Below, piece by piece: positions 2,243-32,966 of a DNA stretch of 34,500 nt (positions within the stretch are counted from its first letter, which is position 1; each line of letters opens with the position of its first letter). Under the pieces are notes generated by a model. It worked only from the letters and a program-made list of their open reading frames with translations, had not been told where the DNA came from and did no database searches. Where the stretch lies: the IMG/VR virus record IMGVR_UViG_3300018424_000003, positions 1 to 34,500 of that record, one strand, 5' to 3'. The position numbers were made by a program, and so were the translations under genes. This DNA comes from a virus.

Positions 2243-2419
2243 ATGACAAAGAAAGACACTAAGCAACTTAATGTCGAACTACCTGTTGATTTAATTGAGA
2301 AGATCGAAGCCTTTTATGTTAGGCACAAAAGGAAGAAATTCAGATCTCAAAAGGAAGCTGTCGCTATGCTGATAGAGGTTGGTATAGAGATATGTAATGA
2401 AAAATTAAAAGATAATTAA
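2243..2419 (+). CDS. Ribbon-helix-helix DNA-binding protein, 58 aa (ParG/CopG-type)
   Basis: The short protein has the RHH order: a strand (K-Q-L-N-V-E-L-P), helix 1 (V-D-L-I-E-K-I-E-A-F-Y), a basic turn (H-K-R-K-K-F-R-S), then helix 2 (Q-K-E-A-V-A-M-L-I-E-V-G-I-E). It ends one base before the parA start, so the two form one operon, and it lies just downstream of four tandem 8-bp repeats. RHH proteins next to ParA ATPases are the centromere-binding and autorepressor partners of type Ib-like partition systems. Here the RHH gene precedes parA, the reverse of ParFG. Confidence 0.78.
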   Translation: MTKKDTKQLNVELPVDLIEKIEAFYVRHKRKKFRSQKEAVAMLIEVGIEICNEKLKDN

Positions 2420-2420
2420 C

Positions 2421-3095
2421 ATGGAAAATTATGTTTTAGCAATTGTAGGTAATAAGGGGGGCATTGGTAAAACAACCTTGGCTTATAATTTTCTTTATTG
2501 GCTAACCCAGCAAGATATTTCTGCTATATTGATAGATTGTGATAATGATCAATATAGTTCCGCTGATTTTGCTCTTGAGCGAAAAGAGGCTGGAATTAAG
2601 CCAGAGCTTGTTGTCAAAAATATGCCAACAAAAGATTTGAGAAAAAACATTGTAAAGCTTGGTAAAAAATACGAGGTTATTATAATAGAGTTTGGTAAAG
2701 CGAATGAAGATATAGAAGAAGTAGACAGAAATTCAGCACTTGAATTGGCAATAAAATTGGCTGATAAGGTCGTGATGCCAATTCAACCCTCCCCTGTTGA
2801 TGTTAAAACTATAGAAAAGGTAGAAGCAAAGCTTCCTTTAAAGGCAAGAGATGTTGAGACTGTTTTGGTTCCTAACCGAATTAAAAGTAAGGATCAACTA
2901 AATGCGCTTCTACGTATTCAGCCCGATTTAGAGTATTTTGAATTTTCGAAGTCTTTTATAAAAGATAGAGTGTGCTATCAAGATTCGCTTGGCGATGAAG
3001 GTAGGTCAGTGCTTGAGATAAAGGCAAAATCAAAATCTGAAAAAGAGGCAAAAAAAGAATTTAGACAACTTTGTAAGGAGATATTTTATGGCTAG
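2421..3095 (+). CDS. parA: ParA-family partition ATPase, 224 aa
   Basis: The deviant Walker A motif G-N-K-G-G-I-G-K-T-T is at residues 10-19, with signature Lys12 and nucleotide-binding Lys17. The Walker A' motif (L-I-D-C-D) is near residues 37-41 and a Walker B-like strand (V-I-I-I-E-F-G) ends with Glu90 where Asp is usual. Length fits the small ParA group lacking an N-terminal DNA-binding domain. With the RHH protein directly upstream, the role is segregation of the circular prophage by ATP-driven movement over the nucleoid. No other segregation gene is visible. The odd point is Glu in the Walker B position. Confidence 0.9.
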   Translation: MENYVLAIVGNKGGIGKTTLAYNFLYWLTQQDISAILIDCDNDQYSSADFALERKEAGIKPELVVKNMPTKDLRKNIVKLGKKYEVIIIEFGKANEDIEEVDRNSALELAIKLADKVVMPIQPSPVDVKTIEKVEAKLPLKARDVETVLVPNRIKSKDQLNALLRIQPDLEYFEFSKSFIKDRVCYQDSLGDEGRSVLEIKAKSKSEKEAKKEFRQLCKEIFYG

Positions 3096-9328: not shown

Positions 9329-11951
9329 TACGGCTGAGGAAATTAACCTAAGCTTACATCCCAAGCAATCACAATGTTTTCTAAGTGATGCAACAGAGAT
9401 ATTATATGGTGGTGCTGCAGGAGGTGGTAAAGCAGAGAGACTAACTAATCTTATAGCAACTCCTTCTAAATTTACTCAAATAGGCGATCTAAAAGTAGGT
9501 GATGAGGTTTTTAATAGCAAAGGCCAGATAACAGAGATTACTGCTGTACATGAGGTAAATCAAAATCCTGATTGTTACAGTGTGATATTTAATACAGGAG
9601 AATCTATAGATTGTGATGCAAATCACCTCTGGGTTACGATGAATGATAAAGAAAGGGAGCAGGCATTAAGATTAACCCCAGAGTTTAGGCAAAGAAGAAG
9701 AAAAAATAGAGCAAGTAGAGCGTTAGAGAATCCTAAAAAAAAATCATCTCAAATAAATATAACTAACTTAAATCAAGAAAGAGAGTATATTTATAAAGAA
9801 CCTCCATTGGGAAAAGAAAGAACAACGAAAGAAATTCTAAAAACTTTAAAGATAAAGCATGGTAAAATAGAAAGACCTAATCATTCAGTAGATGTTTGTG
9901 GCGCATTAGATTTGCCAAGACAAGATTTATTAATATCGCCTTATTTACTAGGCTTATGGTTAGGTGATGGTTGTAAATCTACAGGGTTAATGGGTATGTT
10001 GGAGTCTGATCTTAGAGAATGCTTAAAACATGCTCCAGAAGAAATTGAGTATGAAAGATTGCTTAAAGGCTATAAGCAGCCTTATCTTAGAGTTAAAATT
10101 AAATATTTTAAAGATTACCTTAAATTATTAGGGATTCTAGGTAAAAAAAGAATCCCAACCCAATATCTAAGAGCATCAATAGAGCAGCGAAAAGAGCTTC
10201 TACAAGGTATAATGGATACAGACGGCTCTTGCGATAAGAGGGGTCAGTGTGAATTAGGATTATCAGATAGAGATTTAATAGAAGATGTACATGAACTAAT
10301 ATCATCATTAGGAATAATAGCAACCATAAGAACTAAAGAGTTAAGTAAAAAAAATCCAAAATATAAAGATAGCCATAGGCTTAAATTTGTAGCAGATTTT
10401 CCAGTATTTAAGATCAAGAGAAAGCTAAATAGACAAAAGATGACAGATCTAAGGGCAACTACAAAAAGAAGATATATTGTAGATGTGAAGCCTATTCCAA
10501 CAGTACCTATGCGCTGTATTACCGTAGCATGTCCAACAGGAACATATTTAACAGGCAGATCTTTTATTCCCACTCACAATTCCCACGCAATGCGCGTAAT
10601 AGCGCTAGCATATGCATTAGAAATTCCTAATATACAAATATATCTTTTCCGTAGACTATCAGAAGATCTTAAGAAGAACCATTTAGATGGGCCAAGTGGT
10701 TTTGCTAACCTACTCTCCCCTTTTGTTAACTCTGGTGGCGTTAAAATTAACTACAGCTCTAACCAAATAGTTTTTAGTAATGGTAGCAAAATACATCTAT
10801 GTCACTGCCAACACGAAAAAGATAAAAATAAATATCAAGGTGTAGAAATTAATGTATTGCTAATAGATGAGCTTACACATTTTACTGAAGATATATATAA
10901 ATTCCTAAGATCACGTGTTCGTCTTGGGTCATTAGACGTTCCTGAAAAATATAAAAGCAAGCTTCCTAAGATAATTGCCTCCTCTAACCCTGGTGGCATA
11001 GGTCATGACTTTGTAAAGCACACCTTTATTGACAATAAGGATCCTATGAAGGTTTACCAAGTTCCTGATGAAGAAGGTGGAATGTTAAGGCAATTTATTC
11101 CTGCTAAATTGATTGACAATCCAACAATGCAGGAAAACGATCCTCTATATTCAGCCAAGCTTCTTGGTTTAGGTGGGGCTATGGCTAAGGCTATGCTTGA
11201 GGGTGATTGGGATGCAATAGAAGGTGCCTATTTTGATAGATGGGATAAAGATAAACATGTGATAGATTCATTTATCATCCCTGCTGGTTGGTTTAAGGTC
11301 AGGGCCTTTGATTGGGGATATTCTGCGCCGTTTTGTACGTTATGGGGAGCAATAAGTGATGGCAGCATTATAAATATCAATGGAAAGCCTATAGTTTATC
11401 CACGTGATTCAATAATAATTTATAGAGAATACTATGGAACCACAGGAAAACCGAACCAAGGAATAAAGTTAACCGCAGGAGAAGTTGCAAAAAACACGAG
11501 GCAGATGCAAATAGGAGAAGAGATGGGAATACAGGTTGCTGATCCTGCTATATTTGATGTAAGTAGTGGTATTTCACTTGCTGAACAGATGGCTAAAGAA
11601 GGAGTTTTGTACCATCCAGCTGATAATAAGCGTATTGCAGGATGGCAACAAATTAGAGATAGACTTATGGGAGTTGATGGAAAACCCCTACTCTACATTA
11701 TGAATACATGCAAGAACCTAATTAGAACTTTACCAATAATGCAATATGACAATACTCGTCCTGAGGATTTAGATACTAAAATGGAGGATCATGCGGTGGA
11801 TACATTAAGATATTTATGTATGAGTCGCCCTATTACTATTGATTTACCAAAAGGTCCTCTGGAGATCGCTGATCAGTGGCATAAAGATTTCAATCCTAAG
11901 AATGTGCGTGCTCAAATCAAAAGAAAAAACAATAAGAAAAGCTTTGAATAG
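9321..11951 (+). CDS. terL: Terminase large subunit containing an intein, 876 aa precursor (about 493 aa spliced)
   Basis: The precursor starts with an N-terminal ATPase segment ending G-G-A-A-G-G-G-K (residues 30-37). A 383-residue intein (38-420) follows, and the P-loop resumes as S-H-A-M-R-V at 421. Downstream are a Walker B-like V-L-L-I-D-E-L-T and a nuclease half with F-D-W-G-Y-S and a final D-H-A-V-D-T-L-R-Y. This is the packaging motor and headful-type nuclease that fills the capsid through the portal. Without splicing the ATPase would be broken, since the Walker A motif is split exactly between Lys and Ser. The start overlaps the upstream gene by eight bases and the TAG stop abuts the tRNA gene on the other strand. 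Confidence 0.92.
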   Translation: MDNTAEEINLSLHPKQSQCFLSDATEILYGGAAGGGKAERLTNLIATPSKFTQIGDLKVGDEVFNSKGQITEITAVHEVNQNPDCYSVIFNTGESIDCDANHLWVTMNDKEREQALRLTPEFRQRRRKNRASRALENPKKKSSQINITNLNQEREYIYKEPPLGKERTTKEILKTLKIKHGKIERPNHSVDVCGALDLPRQDLLISPYLLGLWLGDGCKSTGLMGMLESDLRECLKHAPEEIEYERLLKGYKQPYLRVKIKYFKDYLKLLGILGKKRIPTQYLRASIEQRKELLQGIMDTDGSCDKRGQCELGLSDRDLIEDVHELISSLGIIATIRTKELSKKNPKYKDSHRLKFVADFPVFKIKRKLNRQKMTDLRATTKRRYIVDVKPIPTVPMRCITVACPTGTYLTGRSFIPTHNSHAMRVIALAYALEIPNIQIYLFRRLSEDLKKNHLDGPSGFANLLSPFVNSGGVKINYSSNQIVFSNGSKIHLCHCQHEKDKNKYQGVEINVLLIDELTHFTEDIYKFLRSRVRLGSLDVPEKYKSKLPKIIASSNPGGIGHDFVKHTFIDNKDPMKVYQVPDEEGGMLRQFIPAKLIDNPTMQENDPLYSAKLLGLGGAMAKAMLEGDWDAIEGAYFDRWDKDKHVIDSFIIPAGWFKVRAFDWGYSAPFCTLWGAISDGSIININGKPIVYPRDSIIIYREYYGTTGKPNQGIKLTAGEVAKNTRQMQIGEEMGIQVADPAIFDVSSGISLAEQMAKEGVLYHPADNKRIAGWQQIRDRLMGVDGKPLLYIMNTCKNLIRTLPIMQYDNTRPEDLDTKMEDHAVDTLRYLCMSRPITIDLPKGPLEIADQWHKDFNPKNVRAQIKRKNNKKSFE
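9432..10580 (+). mobile_element. Class 3-type intein with LAGLIDADG homing endonuclease, 383 aa, in terL
   Basis: The inserted segment begins Ala-Glu-Arg-Leu (no Cys, Ser or Thr at position 1) and ends P-T-H-N before Ser+1. It has a block A (I-G-D-L-K-V-G-D-E-V-F, 17-27), block B with H65-L-W67, block F with R-C362-I-T-V and Thr381 in T-H-N. Trp, Cys and Thr at these places make the WCT motif that defines class 3 inteins, which splice without residue 1 as nucleophile. The endonuclease motifs L-L-G-L-W-L-G-D-G (intein 172-180) and L-L-Q-G-I-M-D-T-D-G (256-265) are both present with their Asp residues, so the homing enzyme looks intact. Confidence 0.88.
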
Positions 11952-12023
11952 CTGGGACGGCAGGATTCGAACCTGCGCATGGCGGGATCAAAACCCGCTG
12001 CCTTACCGCTTGGCTACGTCCCA
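11952..12023 (-). tRNA. tRNA-Gln (anticodon UUG)
   Basis: On the minus strand the 72 bases fold into a full cloverleaf: acceptor TGGGACG/CGTCCCA with discriminator G, D-arm AGCCAAGCGGTAAGGC, anticodon stem GCGGG/CCCGC around loop TTTTGAT (anticodon TTG), and T-arm GCAGG-TTCGAAT-CCTGC. CCA is not encoded. U1-A72 and G73 are Gln identity features. The gene abuts the terL stop on the opposite strand and is antisense to late transcription. It reads CAA and CAG; it is not an amber suppressor. Its sequence is close to alphaproteobacterial tRNA-Gln as I remember them. Confidence 0.93.
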
Positions 12024-30043: not shown

Positions 30044-30191
30044 TTTTTGCATAATATCAACCCCTATTACCCAATATGACAATGAATTTTCTGCGCTTTC
30101 TCGAAGAACTAAAGAACAAATTCTTCAACACAACGAGAAATACTGCACCTTGTGCGGAGATGAACTTATACAGTGTAGAGGAGGAATATAA
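29946..30191 (+). CDS. o-spanin (Rz1-like) lipoprotein, 81 aa, overlapping the i-spanin
   Basis: Signal segment S-I-L-I-F-L-L-L-A-I-L-S-L-I-V-S-C, with lipobox Cys24, followed by F-C-I-I-S-T-P-I-T-Q-Y-D-N-E-F and Q-I-L-Q-H-N-E-K-Y-C-T-L-C, the (F-C...P-I...H-N...C) pattern of Rz1-type o-spanins. The frame begins inside the i-spanin in another phase and runs past its end. It would anchor in the outer membrane and pair with the i-spanin. Its stop is one base before the GTG I assign to the endolysin. Confidence 0.82.
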   Translation: MLERQNKSILIFLLLAILSLIVSCKNTDASKSSFCIISTPITQYDNEFSALSRRTKEQILQHNEKYCTLCGDELIQCRGGI

Positions 30192-30192
30192 A

Positions 30193-30654
30193 GTGTCTAG
30201 TAACGTAAGAACCAATCCAGGGGCAAGTTTATTGAAAAGAAAAAACTTTAGCCCCGAAGAGTTCTTTCATTCAGACACAGCAGAAAGGCACAATATTGAC
30301 AATTCAACTGATAGTATTGTTATTCTATCAGATCTATGCACAACGGCAGATAAAATACAAGAAATAAGGGATTTCTTAGGTCATCCCATAAGAATTACTT
30401 CAGGCTACAGATGCTCAGAACTTAATGATCTAGTTGGAGGAAGTAAGAACTCTCAACATATGGAAGGTCAAGCTGTTGACTTCATTTGCTTTAAGTTTGG
30501 CACCCCAGAAGATATTGTAAGGGCGATTAAAAAAGAAGGAATAGAAGTTGACCAATGCCTCATTGAAAAAACCTGGGTACATCTTTCAATCAAAGATAAA
30601 GATAACCGAAATATGTTCGGTTTTTATTTGAATAATAAATTTAGACCCCTATAA
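30193..30654 (+). CDS. M15-family peptidase endolysin, 153 aa (GTG start)
   Basis: Zinc-peptidase motifs from the GTG: I-T-S-G-Y-R-C-S-E-L-N-D at 68-79, S-Q-H-M-E-G-Q-A-V-D-F (His89, Asp96) at 87-97 and W-V-H-L-S (His130). It would cut peptidoglycan cross-bridges (L,D- or D,D-peptidase of M15). I choose GTG at 30193 because GAGGAGG lies at 30178-30184, nine bases before it, and because the longer ATG start at 30076 would add 39 residues lying fully in the o-spanin frame. No signal peptide, so a holin is needed. Confidence 0.85.
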   Translation: MSSNVRTNPGASLLKRKNFSPEEFFHSDTAERHNIDNSTDSIVILSDLCTTADKIQEIRDFLGHPIRITSGYRCSELNDLVGGSKNSQHMEGQAVDFICFKFGTPEDIVRAIKKEGIEVDQCLIEKTWVHLSIKDKDNRNMFGFYLNNKFRPL

Positions 30655-30924: not shown

Positions 30925-30997
30925 AATTAGAAAAGAATTAACCCCAATTAATCAACAAACAGCTCTATTAATATGGCACAAGACGACGAAAATCTAA
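30866..30997 (+). CDS. Very basic peptide, 43 aa
   Basis: ATG at 30866 has a strong Shine-Dalgarno (AAGGAGGG, ending eight bases upstream) inside the previous gene; the frame (M-F-R-K-M-I-N-A-L-K-K-K-K-K-V-I-R-K-F) overlaps both neighbours. The ribosome site makes translation likely; the function is unknown. Confidence 0.4.
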   Translation: MFRKMINALKKKKKVIRKFKIRKELTPINQQTALLIWHKTTKI

Positions 30998-31317
30998 TAG
31001 TAATAAAGAAATCAAGCGCAAAGAAATTAATTGCCAAGATCTCGCTAAAATTATACGATCACTACCTCAAGGCCCAAAAGGAGCTAACAATGTTTTGGCG
31101 TAAGGTATTTAGAAGTGAATCCAGAATAATGACTCTTCTTAACTCTCCTGCCATAGTATTATTCTTTAACACCGTATTGTTTGGATTTGTGGGCAGAGTT
31201 TTTGAGGGCCTTATATCACAAATGCTTTTATATGCCGCAACAATTAACATCTTCATGTTCTTGTTTGAGAAGATGGGTTGGATTGAGAAGATGAGGAAGT
31301 GGGTGGCTACTGAATAG
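30973..31317 (+). CDS. Hypothetical membrane protein, 114 aa
   Basis: Basic N-terminus (K-K-S-S-A-K-K-L-I-A-K-I-S-L-K-L-Y-D), then hydrophobic segments (S-P-A-I-V-L-F-F-N-T-V-L-F-G-F-V-G and I-S-Q-M-L-L-Y-A-A-T-I-N-I-F-M-F-L-F), and a C-terminal amphipathic helix (W-I-E-K-M-R-K-W-V). Two membrane spans. It is the last plus-strand gene before the minus-strand cassette, with which its end overlaps by 11 bases. Could be a lysis timing or exclusion protein. Confidence 0.6.
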   Translation: MAQDDENLIVIKKSSAKKLIAKISLKLYDHYLKAQKELTMFWRKVFRSESRIMTLLNSPAIVLFFNTVLFGFVGRVFEGLISQMLLYAATINIFMFLFEKMGWIEKMRKWVATE

Positions 31318-31672
31318 ATGCTGGGTTTGTCCAGATTATTGTAGCTTTGCCGTTTATGTAGGCCATGGCTTTGGCTATGTGCAGCCTTTTCCCATTGAAT
31401 TCTTGCATATAAGATTCTATGACAGCAGCTTTGTAAGGCTCCTTACTAGACCATACACATCTTTTTTTATCAAATACCTTTTCTAATGCTGTTCTTTTAC
31501 TAGGGTCAGCCATAAAAGATTGGCTAGTTTTAACAAATTTCTTGAAACTTTTTTCTGACTTACAAAAAATAGACCCCTCCTTCAAAACCGTCTCAACAAC
31601 CTTCCCTTTCCCAAAACTAGCACAACTAGCCGCAATCAAAAGCAAAGTAACCGCTATATCTATTCTTCTCAT
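31307..31672 (-). CDS. Secreted lipoprotein, 121 aa
   Basis: The protein begins M-R-R-I-D-I-A-V-T-L-L-L-I-A-A-S-C, a short signal segment with lipobox Cys17. The mature part (F-C-K-S-E-K-S-F-K-K-F-V-K, then K-K-R-C-V-W, and K-A-T-I-I-W-T-N at the end) resembles small secreted proteins with a conserved Cys pair and beta core. Last gene of the minus-strand operon, after the secreted nuclease-like protein. A periplasmic or outer-membrane anchored role such as immunity or exclusion is only inferred. Confidence 0.7.
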   Translation of the reverse strand: MRRIDIAVTLLLIAASCASFGKGKVVETVLKEGSIFCKSEKSFKKFVKTSQSFMADPSKRTALEKVFDKKRCVWSSKEPYKAAVIESYMQEFNGKRLHIAKAMAYINGKATIIWTNPASIQ

Positions 31673-31681
31673 ATCTCTCTC

Positions 31682-32065
31682 CTATTTATAAATTTCAATG
31701 ATTTTTAAATCAAGGTTATGCTTAGACCTTATTTTGTAAAGCCTTTTTAGGTATTTTTGGTCATGTTCTTTATTTTCCATAATTAATGCTACAGTTGCCT
31801 TTTTTCCTGTTTTAGCGCTGTAGTATAATGCCTGCCCTACTCCTTCGGCCCATTTGTTAGCGAAATCGAATTCTATAGCCAAATCTTTAGTTAGGCAGTC
31901 TACCCTTGTATTATCATCTAACTTGTACTCTACGTGGCCCTTACAGTGTTTATTTTGGTAATAGCTTTCTGGGTTAGCTCTTTTTGCTAAGGATGGTTTT
32001 GGTATTAATAAAAGCAAAGCGGCTAGGAAGGCTATTAGTAATGGGATTATGTATGTGGATTTCAT
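31682..32065 (-). CDS. Secreted PD-(D/E)XK nuclease-like protein, 127 aa
   Basis: A signal peptide (residues 1-27, ending P-S-L-A) precedes a mature part with H-V-E-Y-K-L (Glu46), T-R-V-D-C-L-T (Asp56), A-I-E-F-D-F-A-N-K-W (Glu65, Lys71) and E-G-V-G-Q-A-L-Y-Y (Gln78). The E-D-ExxK-Q order is that of PD-(D/E)XK nucleases, and a secreted family with R-V-D-C-L-T and E-F-D-F-A-x-K-W is common in proteobacteria as uncharacterised proteins. Exported by a phage, it may degrade DNA outside the cytoplasm or act on competitors. Activity is inferred. Confidence 0.72.
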   Translation of the reverse strand: MKSTYIIPLLIAFLAALLLLIPKPSLAKRANPESYYQNKHCKGHVEYKLDDNTRVDCLTKDLAIEFDFANKWAEGVGQALYYSAKTGKKATVALIMENKEHDQKYLKRLYKIRSKHNLDLKIIEIYK

Positions 32066-32068
32066 GAT

Positions 32069-32413
32069 TTAGAGATACTGCGATAGTTTTATTATAGCAA
32101 CGGCAATACCTAGCCATACTGTCATAACCGCAGGTATTTTTATTAATAGATCTTTTTGAAGTAATTCAAACTTCATATCTATATGCTCTATTTTCAGATC
32201 AAAATATTCCCTTGTTACCAGATCTTCTTGACTTTCTATTATTGCATCAGCAACAACTTCAGCTTGAGCTGTCGCTAGTTCGTCACCCTTAAGGCCCGCC
32301 GTCTTTTCTCTATAGCGTTTTATTACCTCATGCTTATCAAAGCTACTTTTGTTACTTTTAACCCCTGCGGATTTTGTAGTGCTTTTTGTGGATCTTTTGC
32401 TTATTTTTGTCAT
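32069..32413 (-). CDS. Coiled-coil protein with C-terminal membrane span, 114 aa
   Basis: Basic Ser/Lys-rich N-terminus, then a helix (A-T-A-Q-A-E-V-V-A-D-A-I-I-E-S-Q), the segment L-V-T-R-E-Y-F-D-L-K-I-E-H-I-D-M-K-F-E-L-L-Q and a hydrophobic end (I-P-A-V-M-T-V-W-L-G-I-A-V-A-I-I-K-L). This is the layout of DUF1640-like proteins (coiled coil plus tail anchor), frequent in alphaproteobacteria. Similarity is by pattern only. It lies one base after the upstream gene. Confidence 0.65.
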   Translation of the reverse strand: MTKISKRSTKSTTKSAGVKSNKSSFDKHEVIKRYREKTAGLKGDELATAQAEVVADAIIESQEDLVTREYFDLKIEHIDMKFELLQKDLLIKIPAVMTVWLGIAVAIIKLSQYL

Positions 32414-32414
32414 A

Positions 32415-32660
32415 TTAAAACTCCAATTTGTCGAATTTCTTCAATTTACCTTCTAATGATGTCTTTTTAGCTTCAACTACTTTCTTGGCAAACGCCCTTC
32501 TCACACGCTTCTTGTTTAATCTTAAAAACATAGCCTGCCTGGTATTATCTAGGCCTTCGATATCAATTAATTCTTGCGCACCTATACCCATCTCATCCAA
32601 AAATTCTGCAAATTTATCAAATTCTTCTGTGTTTAGAAATTTCTCTCTTTTATTCGTCAT
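32415..32660 (-). CDS. Small helical protein, first gene of the minus-strand operon, 81 aa
   Basis: The first in-frame ATG after the promoter (-10 at 32701-32706) is 32666 or 32660; I use 32660 (M-T-N-K-R-E-K-F). A longer frame to 32768 begins upstream of the promoter and is therefore not real. Acidic helices (E-F-D-K-F-A-E-F-L-D-E-M-G-I-G-A-Q-E-L) are followed by a basic half (N-K-K-R-V-R-R-A-F-A-K-K-V-V-E-A-K-K). Function unknown; size and charge suit a regulator of this operon. Confidence 0.6.
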   Translation of the reverse strand: MTNKREKFLNTEEFDKFAEFLDEMGIGAQELIDIEGLDNTRQAMFLRLNKKRVRRAFAKKVVEAKKTSLEGKLKKFDKLEF

Positions 32661-32700
32661 AATCATAGATTTTTTATAAAATATTAAAAAACTTGACGAT

Positions 32701-32729
32701 ATGGTAAGATTTTCTTTATATAATGTCAA
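32701..32729 (-). promoter_or_regulatory. Promoter of the minus-strand cassette
   Basis: On the minus strand TTGACA (plus coordinates 32724-32729) and TACCAT (32701-32706) are 17 bases apart. The start of transcription would be near 32694, about 35 bases before the ATG at 32660. The -35 is covered by an inverted repeat (see next entry). Confidence 0.7.
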
Positions 32730-32748
32730 TAGTGTATTATTTTGACAT
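32723..32748. promoter_or_regulatory. Inverted repeat over the minus-strand -35 (candidate operator)
   Basis: ATGTCAA (32723-32729) and TTGACAT (32742-32748) are perfect inverted repeats with a 12-base interval. The left arm is the -35 of the minus-strand promoter. A bound repressor or activator would control the cassette. It is the only obvious regulatory site at this promoter; the protein is not identified. Confidence 0.55.
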
Positions 32749-32784
32749 AGTATAAATATTTTTAACATCTAGTTAAAAAAATTG

Positions 32785-32819: not shown

Positions 32820-32966
32820 AACCATAAAAAAAGCGACCACAAATTGAGAGAAGTTTTCGCACACACAACTCAATTTATGATCGCCCGATTTTCCTTACTT
32901 ATTGTCCTATTGGTTAATAAGTAATTCGGTTAGCATTTTTTGTGGAGCAATACTAACCCTTTTTTT
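32820..32966 (+). ncRNA. Putative small RNA or attenuated leader (about 147 nt)
   Basis: Between the promoter and a T-run three hairpins are visible: SL1, GCGA...AAATTGAG (32841-32848) with CTCAATTT...TCGC (32869-32884); SL2, CCGA and TTACTTATT (32895-32903) with AATAAGTAA (32916-32924) and TCGG; SL3, GGTTAG with CTAACC (32928-32958) followed by seven T. No frame fits in the interval. A promoter, compact structure and terminator form a complete small RNA unit. The 44-aa frame starts 10 bases after the T-run, so an attenuator is the alternative. Confidence 0.6.
32928..32966 (+). terminator. Intrinsic terminator with seven-base T-run
   Basis: GGTTAG (32928-32933) pairs with CTAACC (32953-32958); after one mismatch three more pairs extend it inward. 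T-run at 32960-32966. Typical rho-independent terminator ending the structured RNA. Confidence 0.75.

What the first reader, a model, noticed from the sequence alone, without database searches (positions are those of the whole stretch)
31307..32729. Opposite-strand operon with a secreted nuclease-like protein and a lipoprotein: possible undescribed effector or exclusion system
Seen: four tightly packed minus-strand genes behind a TTGACA-17-TACCAT promoter with its own inverted repeat. One is a signal-peptide protein with the E-D-ExxK-Q order of PD-(D/E)XK nucleases, another has a lipobox, and another is a tail-anchored coiled coil. Known: phage moron operons are often opposite-strand, independently regulated and act in the carrier cell. 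Inferred: an exported nuclease that degrades incoming or extracellular DNA, with the lipoprotein as partner or inhibitor. I know of no described system of this form.
Basis: partly seen in the sequence, partly recalled or inferred. Interest (0 to 1): 0.72.

Follow-up and report, generated by a model that had tools for sequence, protein, structure and literature searches.

The report
Phage-borne exported nuclease, uncatalogued family
A small phage gene next to the cell-bursting enzyme encodes an exported protein with the fold of a DNA-cutting enzyme; it belongs to a widespread family that three major reference libraries do not list, and it probably destroys foreign DNA outside the cell's inner membrane.

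Summary
The operon is real: four tightly spaced minus-strand genes, a consensus-like promoter, an overlapping inverted repeat, and a strong upstream terminator. Only one gene has detectable relatives.

The 127-aa protein belongs to an uncatalogued family: no Pfam, PHROG or NCBIfam match, yet 73 relatives in viral contigs and at least 244 in bacterial genomes. Its model (pLDDT 92.9) has the PD-(D/E)XK nuclease topology; the best structural match is the NucS nuclease (Z 9.4, 2.2 Å over 86 residues). Catalytic-type residues E33, D56, E65, Q78 and Y82 are (nearly) invariant. The usual lysine is replaced by aspartate (D67), and an almost invariant K71 sits one helix turn away. Nearly all members carry a signal peptide. 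Two cysteines are kept together or lost together, as expected of a disulfide in an exported protein.

The lipoprotein-partner idea fails: neither the 121-aa protein nor the other two genes recurs beside any of 153 relatives.

Best explanation: an exported nuclease carried as an accessory gene by phages and bacteria, acting on DNA outside the inner membrane (transforming DNA, incoming phage DNA, or lysis debris). Activity and role are inferred. Mobile-element secreted DNases that block transformation are known; this fold, family and breadth appear undescribed. It is a new variant of a known kind.

The parts
32833..32884 (-). Intrinsic-terminator-like hairpin with a U7 tail, upstream of the operon; would stop minus-strand read-through into it
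   Evidence: 16-nt arms 88% complementary; MFE -25.8 kcal/mol, z -5.3, 0 of 200 shuffles as stable
32701..32729 (-). Promoter-like site TTGACA-17-TACCAT
   Evidence: 10/12 consensus match, best of 8 in the region, but 8.8 expected by chance
32715..32756 (.). Operator-like inverted repeat overlapping the -35 element
   Evidence: 15-nt arms, 87% complementary; 9 of 300 shuffles hold one as good
32415..32663 (-). Gene 1: 82 aa, charged, unknown; no detectable relatives
32069..32413 (-). Gene 2: 114 aa, putative coiled coil with C-terminal hydrophobic anchor; no detectable relatives (one chance-level plasmid match annotated CCDC90 family)
31682..32065 (-). Gene 3: 127 aa exported PD-(D/E)XK-fold protein; signal peptide residues 1-27, mature 28-127
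   Evidence: family alignment, AlphaFold model pLDDT 92.9, NucS Z 9.4
31307..31672 (-). Gene 4: 121 aa, N-terminal hydrophobic segment with a loose lipobox; no detectable relatives; overlaps the end of the convergent plus-strand gene 30973-31317
   Evidence: single-sequence model unusable, pLDDT 49
30076..30654 (+). Neighbouring phage endolysin (peptidase M15_3)
   Evidence: Pfam PF08291 E 5e-20; phrog_894 E 4e-37

Best explanation
The 127-aa protein is a Sec-exported, disulfide-stabilised nuclease of PD-(D/E)XK fold with a variant active site: metal ligands D56 and E65 (probably with E33 and D67), the RecB/NucS-type helix residues Q78 and Y82, and K71 standing in for the canonical lysine. Phages carry it as an accessory gene that moves between positions in their genomes, and some bacteria keep their own chromosomal copy. 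Export puts it in the periplasm or outside, away from the carrier's chromosome, so it needs no immunity partner. There it most likely degrades DNA that is entering or near the cell, transforming DNA first and incoming phage DNA second. This protects a resident element from being replaced or superinfected. Shown here: the family, the predicted fold, residue conservation, the predicted export signal, and mobile carriage. Inferred: metal-dependent DNA cleavage, disulfide formation, and the barrier role.
For: Fold: 127-residue model, pLDDT 92.9, order helix-strand-strand-strand-helix-strand-helix-strand. NucS 2vld Z 9.4, 2.2 A over 86 residues; the next ranks are mostly nucleases of this fold (CdiA-CT toxin, PaqCI, Can1, BamHI, OkrAI, Card1, BstYI). 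Residues over 154 sequences: E33 153, D56 153, E65 154, D67 153, K71 151, E74 154, Q78 154, Y82 154. P. abyssi NucS has E127, D160, E174, K176, Q187, Y191 (PMC7343888): E65-Q78-Y82 has the same spacing (13, 4) as E174-Q187-Y191. Export: 137 of 154 members pass a crude signal-peptide rule and most of the rest have one by eye; in non-redundant viral loci 48/58 members vs 87/579 other ORFs. Cysteines C41 and C57: both in 148, neither in 5, one alone only in a truncated member. Carriage: phages with repressors, Mu-like phages, a 440-kb phage. One viral locus has PD-Lambda-1 (SNIPE-type) beside it. 71 of 117 genomes of one host order carry it, and 115 of 117 have the ComEC channel family. Precedent: mobile-element secreted DNases cut transformation 10- to 1000-fold (PMC4774983).
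Against: No activity data. The canonical catalytic lysine is missing, and K71 is N, Q or G in 3 members. Sequence profiles do not link it to NucS (hhalign E 0.16), and Foldseek alone finds nothing significant in the PDB. Association with repressors is weak: within 3 genes 9 of 58 vs 4.5 expected (P 0.01), not significant within 1 or 2 genes. Some copies sit among portal and head genes, which suggests late, lytic expression rather than expression in the lysogen. ComEC is near-universal in many bacteria, so it does not single out transformation.
Confidence: 0.5

Rival explanations
1. Late lytic helper: the exported nuclease is made with late or lysis genes and clears host or debris DNA outside the cell during lysis, freeing progeny from viscous DNA, or salvages nucleotides.
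For: In the window it lies next to the M15 endolysin. In several Mu-like relatives it lies near an amidase or between portal and head-morphogenesis genes on the same strand; 42 of 54 viral loci have it on the strand of most large genes.
Against: In the window it is on the opposite strand with its own promoter and terminator. In others it lies beside CI/LexA-type repressors. Bacterial chromosomal copies in conserved gene order exist outside phages.
Confidence: 0.25
2. Exported DNA-binding or structural protein with a degenerate nuclease fold, without catalysis.
For: Canonical ExK lysine absent; K71 not fully invariant.
Against: Seven other active-site-type residues are invariant or nearly so over 154 divergent sequences; pseudo-enzymes normally lose them.
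Confidence: 0.12
3. Nuclease effector plus lipoprotein inhibitor (exclusion or toxin system).
For: The 121-aa gene follows directly in the same operon; +-1 neighbours of relatives are more often exported than other genes, 23/78 vs 87/579, P 0.003.
Against: No relative of the lipoprotein near any of 153 relatives or in viral contigs; neighbours differ from locus to locus.
Confidence: 0.06
4. Nutrient-type extracellular nuclease of the host that phages picked up; its value to phage is incidental.
For: Widespread in gut Gastranaerophilales with conserved gene order and a small secreted Cys-rich neighbour.
Against: Repeated presence in phages of many unrelated lineages suggests selection on the phage; the tree needs 23 changes between viral and cellular labels, though few are firmly supported.
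Confidence: 0.07

Closest known systems
NucS/EndoMS C-terminal nuclease domain (PF01939; P. abyssi NucS, PDB 2vld)
   Same: Closest solved fold (Z 9.4, 2.2 A over 86 aa); same acid, Q and Y positions and the same E-Q-Y spacing
   Different: No significant sequence match; lacks the N-terminal DNA-binding domain; exported with two conserved Cys; ExD instead of ExK
Mobile-element secreted DNases that block natural transformation (Dns of CJIE1/2/4, IdeA, YokF, streptodornases; PMC4774983)
   Same: Secreted or exported nuclease carried by a prophage or other mobile element; likely target is incoming or extracellular DNA
   Different: From my own knowledge those have other folds (endonuclease I, DNA/RNA non-specific, SNase types); effect on transformation untested here
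SNIPE / PD-Lambda-1 membrane nuclease (PMC13190303)
   Same: Nuclease placed at the envelope so that location separates foreign from own DNA; one SNIPE-type gene lies beside a relative (L005)
   Different: SNIPE is GIY-YIG plus DUF4041, inner-membrane anchored with the nuclease in the cytoplasm; this one is exported, single-domain, PD-(D/E)XK fold
CdiA-CT nuclease toxin (PDB 4zqu)
   Same: Same fold class (Z 6.7)
   Different: No delivery domain and no immunity gene here
HK97 gp15-type superinfection-exclusion morons (cited in PMC13190303)
   Same: Phage accessory gene acting at the envelope
   Different: Not a nuclease

Membership tests
PD-(D/E)XK nuclease superfamily | alpha-beta-beta-beta-alpha-beta core | tested here: met
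   AlphaFold2 model pLDDT 92.9 and matches to NucS, BamHI, Can1, PaqCI; predicted, not solved
PD-(D/E)XK nuclease superfamily | Conserved Asp on strand 2 and Glu on strand 3 | tested here: met
   D56 in 153 and E65 in 154 of 154 sequences
PD-(D/E)XK nuclease superfamily | Canonical Lys two residues after the Glu (ExK) | tested here: not met
   Position holds D67 (153 of 154); K71 on the next helix is a candidate substitute (151 of 154). Hence 'PD-(D/E)XK-fold with variant active site', not a canonical member
RecB/NucS-type PD-(D/E)XK branch | QxxxY on the helix after the Glu strand | tested here: met
   Q78 and Y82 in 154 of 154; NucS Q187, Y191
NucS/EndoMS (PF01939) | Sequence-profile match to the family | tested here: not met
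   No Pfam match to NucS for any of 15 members; hhalign with a NucS-like protein E 0.16
Mobile-element secreted DNase | Export signal | tested here: met
   Signal peptide in nearly all members; residues 1-27 in the window protein
Mobile-element secreted DNase | Carried by a phage or other mobile element | tested here: met
   Window phage plus 73 viral-contig relatives and annotated phages
Mobile-element secreted DNase | DNase activity that lowers transformation | not testable with these tools
   Needs bench assay
SNIPE (PD-Lambda-1) | GIY-YIG nuclease with DUF4041 and membrane anchor | tested here: not met
   No Pfam match to these domains; different predicted fold
Toxin-immunity pair | Conserved adjacent immunity gene | tested here: not met
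   121-aa neighbour absent beside 153 relatives and from viral contigs

The most novel reading that the evidence does not exclude
An undescribed, widely spread class of exported, disulfide-locked PD-(D/E)XK nuclease with a relocated catalytic lysine that works as a stand-alone envelope barrier: resident phages use compartment alone to tell foreign DNA from self and block both transformation and superinfection.
Probability: 0.3. Interest if true: 0.75.

Novelty: new variant of a known kind. Interest (0 to 1): 0.5.

Why it matters
Exported PD-(D/E)XK nucleases outside delivered toxins are, to my knowledge, hardly described. A family this conserved (seven or more near-invariant active-site residues over several bacterial phyla and many phages) is missing from Pfam, PHROGs and NCBIfam, so each copy is called 'hypothetical'. 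If it cleaves DNA in the envelope it gives phages a simple way to protect a lysogen against other DNA, comparable in logic to SNIPE but on the other side of the membrane. It is small and testable, with clear mutants (D56, E65, K71, C41/C57).

Tried and rejected
Family libraries: no match for the 127-aa protein, and only chance-level matches for 14 relatives, in Pfam, PHROGs or NCBIfam. PDB sequence search: only chance matches. Foldseek against PDB: best E 0.27; the NucS match came from VIA-align re-scoring of Foldseek's candidates. Relatives of the 121-, 114- and 82-aa proteins: none. Fold of the 121-aa protein: pLDDT 49, not used. Operator elsewhere in the window: not found. Strong link to repressors: tested and weak. 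Opposite-strand 'moron' as a family rule: rejected, 12 of 54. Profile comparison with NucS: not significant. Plasmid collection: no relative.

Full report
What is there. The window is a 34.5-kb virus record. Plus-strand genes run from replication and recombination functions (initiator, ParA, RecT, RecE, SSB) through terminase and portal to an M15-type endolysin at 30076-30654. Shortly after it lie four minus-strand ORFs, 32663 to 31307, with gaps of 1, 3 and 9 nt; the last overlaps the end of the convergent gene 30973-31317. Strand skews flip over this stretch. The promoter TTGACA-17-TACCAT is the best site in the region, though such sites are expected there by chance. What makes it more convincing is an inverted repeat spanning its -35 (9 of 300 shuffles as good) and a very stable terminator hairpin just upstream on the same strand (z -5.3).

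The 127-aa protein. It has no match in Pfam, PHROGs or NCBIfam, and 14 diverse relatives have only chance-level ones. Yet 73 viral contigs and at least 244 stretches in 84,980 bacterial and archaeal genomes encode relatives. The 80 genome loci kept come mainly from Gastranaerophilales, with Desulfobacterota, Campylobacterota, Nitrospirae and others. Among named phages: Nitratiruptor NrS-2 to NrS-5, Rhizobium RR1-A, Salicola SCTP-2 and Dulem virus 31, all 'hypothetical protein'. In one host order 71 of 117 genomes carry it.

Fold and active site. AlphaFold2 with 15 sequences gave mean pLDDT 92.9. The order of elements is that of the PD-(D/E)XK core. Re-scoring of Foldseek's candidates ranks NucS first (Z 9.4, 2.2 A, 86 residues), clear of the rest, and nucleases of this fold fill most of the next places; plain Foldseek gave no significant PDB match. 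Among viral models, the top match (A0A248SKB8, 161 aa, the length of SCTP-2 gp426) and proteins of giant and phaeoviruses (KilA-N proteins, FirrV-1-A34) match (E 1e-8 to 4e-4). Over 154 sequences E65, E74, Q78 and Y82 never vary, and E33, D56, D67 and K71 vary in 1 to 3. E65-Q78-Y82 has the spacing of NucS E174-Q187-Y191; the aligned ranges start at 32 and 126, which puts E33 on NucS E127 if there is no gap (inferred). The departure is the lysine: NucS K176 corresponds to D67. K71, E74, Q78 and Y82 are spaced 3, 4 and 4 along one helix and so share a face (sequence reasoning). I infer that K71 takes over. In three members K71 is N, Q or G, so this is not certain.

Export. A crude signal-peptide rule is met by 137 of 154; most of the others have one by eye, and three clearly lack it (L035, L140, L143). 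In non-redundant viral loci, 48 of 58 family members have an N-terminal hydrophobic core versus 87 of 579 other ORFs. C41 and C57 occur together in 148 and are both absent in 5; the one exception is a truncated ORF. Four of the five losses are near-identical sequences, so this is about two independent events. Such pairing is what a disulfide in an oxidising compartment would give.

Context. Neighbours vary. Repressors are the commonest named families at +-1 and +-2, as in NrS-4 and Dulem virus 31. The statistical excess is small: within three genes 9 of 58 versus 4.5 expected, P 0.01; closer, not significant. Other copies lie between portal and head genes or near amidases in Mu-like phages. 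Only 12 of 54 lie against the main strand. Neighbours at +-1 are somewhat enriched in exported proteins (23/78 vs 87/579, P 0.003), but of different kinds. In Gastranaerophilales a chromosomal copy sits in conserved gene order, with a small secreted CSHHGGVCGC protein directly upstream in 10 loci. One viral locus has a PD-Lambda-1 (SNIPE-type) gene beside it and another a patatin-type effector. So the gene is a mobile single unit; the lipoprotein, coiled-coil and 82-aa genes are local company without detectable relatives.

How it most likely works. An exported nuclease can cut only DNA outside the inner membrane: transforming DNA, phage DNA in transit, or DNA from lysed cells. Prophages and other elements are known to carry secreted DNases that lower transformation 10- to 1000-fold (YokF, Dns of CJIE1/2/4, IdeA; PMC4774983), which can protect the element from removal by recombination. 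SNIPE shows that placing a nuclease at the envelope can separate foreign from own DNA (PMC13190303). I give export about 0.9, nuclease activity about 0.8, and the entry-barrier role about 0.5, with a lysis-time role as main rival (0.25).

Novelty. The principle is known; the fold, variant active site, disulfide, size and breadth of this family appear undescribed in the libraries and papers I could search. It is a new variant of a known kind. I do not call it a NucS or a canonical PD-(D/E)XK enzyme, because the profile test and the lysine test were not met.

Noticed in passing
window 2243-3095 and 1192-2070: RHH-like 58-aa ORF, ParA-like gene and a replication initiator, with no integrase seen: the phage may live as a phage-plasmid.
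   Followed up: partly
window 32833-32884 (minus strand): Very stable intrinsic-terminator-like hairpin (z -5.3) with no obvious minus-strand gene upstream of it.
   Followed up: partly
window 11951-12023: tRNA-Gln (TTG) on the minus strand between terminase and portal genes.
   Followed up: no
L005:6400-7773: PD-Lambda-1 (SNIPE-type) protein encoded next to the exported nuclease in a viral contig.
   Followed up: partly
L019, L021, L025, L028, L030, L032, L042, L049, L053, L066: Small secreted Cys-rich CSHHGGVCGC protein directly upstream of the nuclease in Gastranaerophilales; no Pfam family matched the one tested.
   Followed up: partly
BFVD Q6XM53, L7Y5M1, A0A6G6ADR0: Giant-virus KilA-N proteins and a phaeovirus protein share the predicted nuclease fold.
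   Followed up: no
L155 (PP511318.1): Dulem virus 31 is labelled Microviridae but is a 35.8-kb CI-bearing genome; probably a taxonomy error in the record.
   Followed up: no
L143:6046-6333, L140, L035: Family members without a signal peptide.
   Followed up: no
L144, L147-L149, L153: Members that lost both conserved cysteines.
   Followed up: partly
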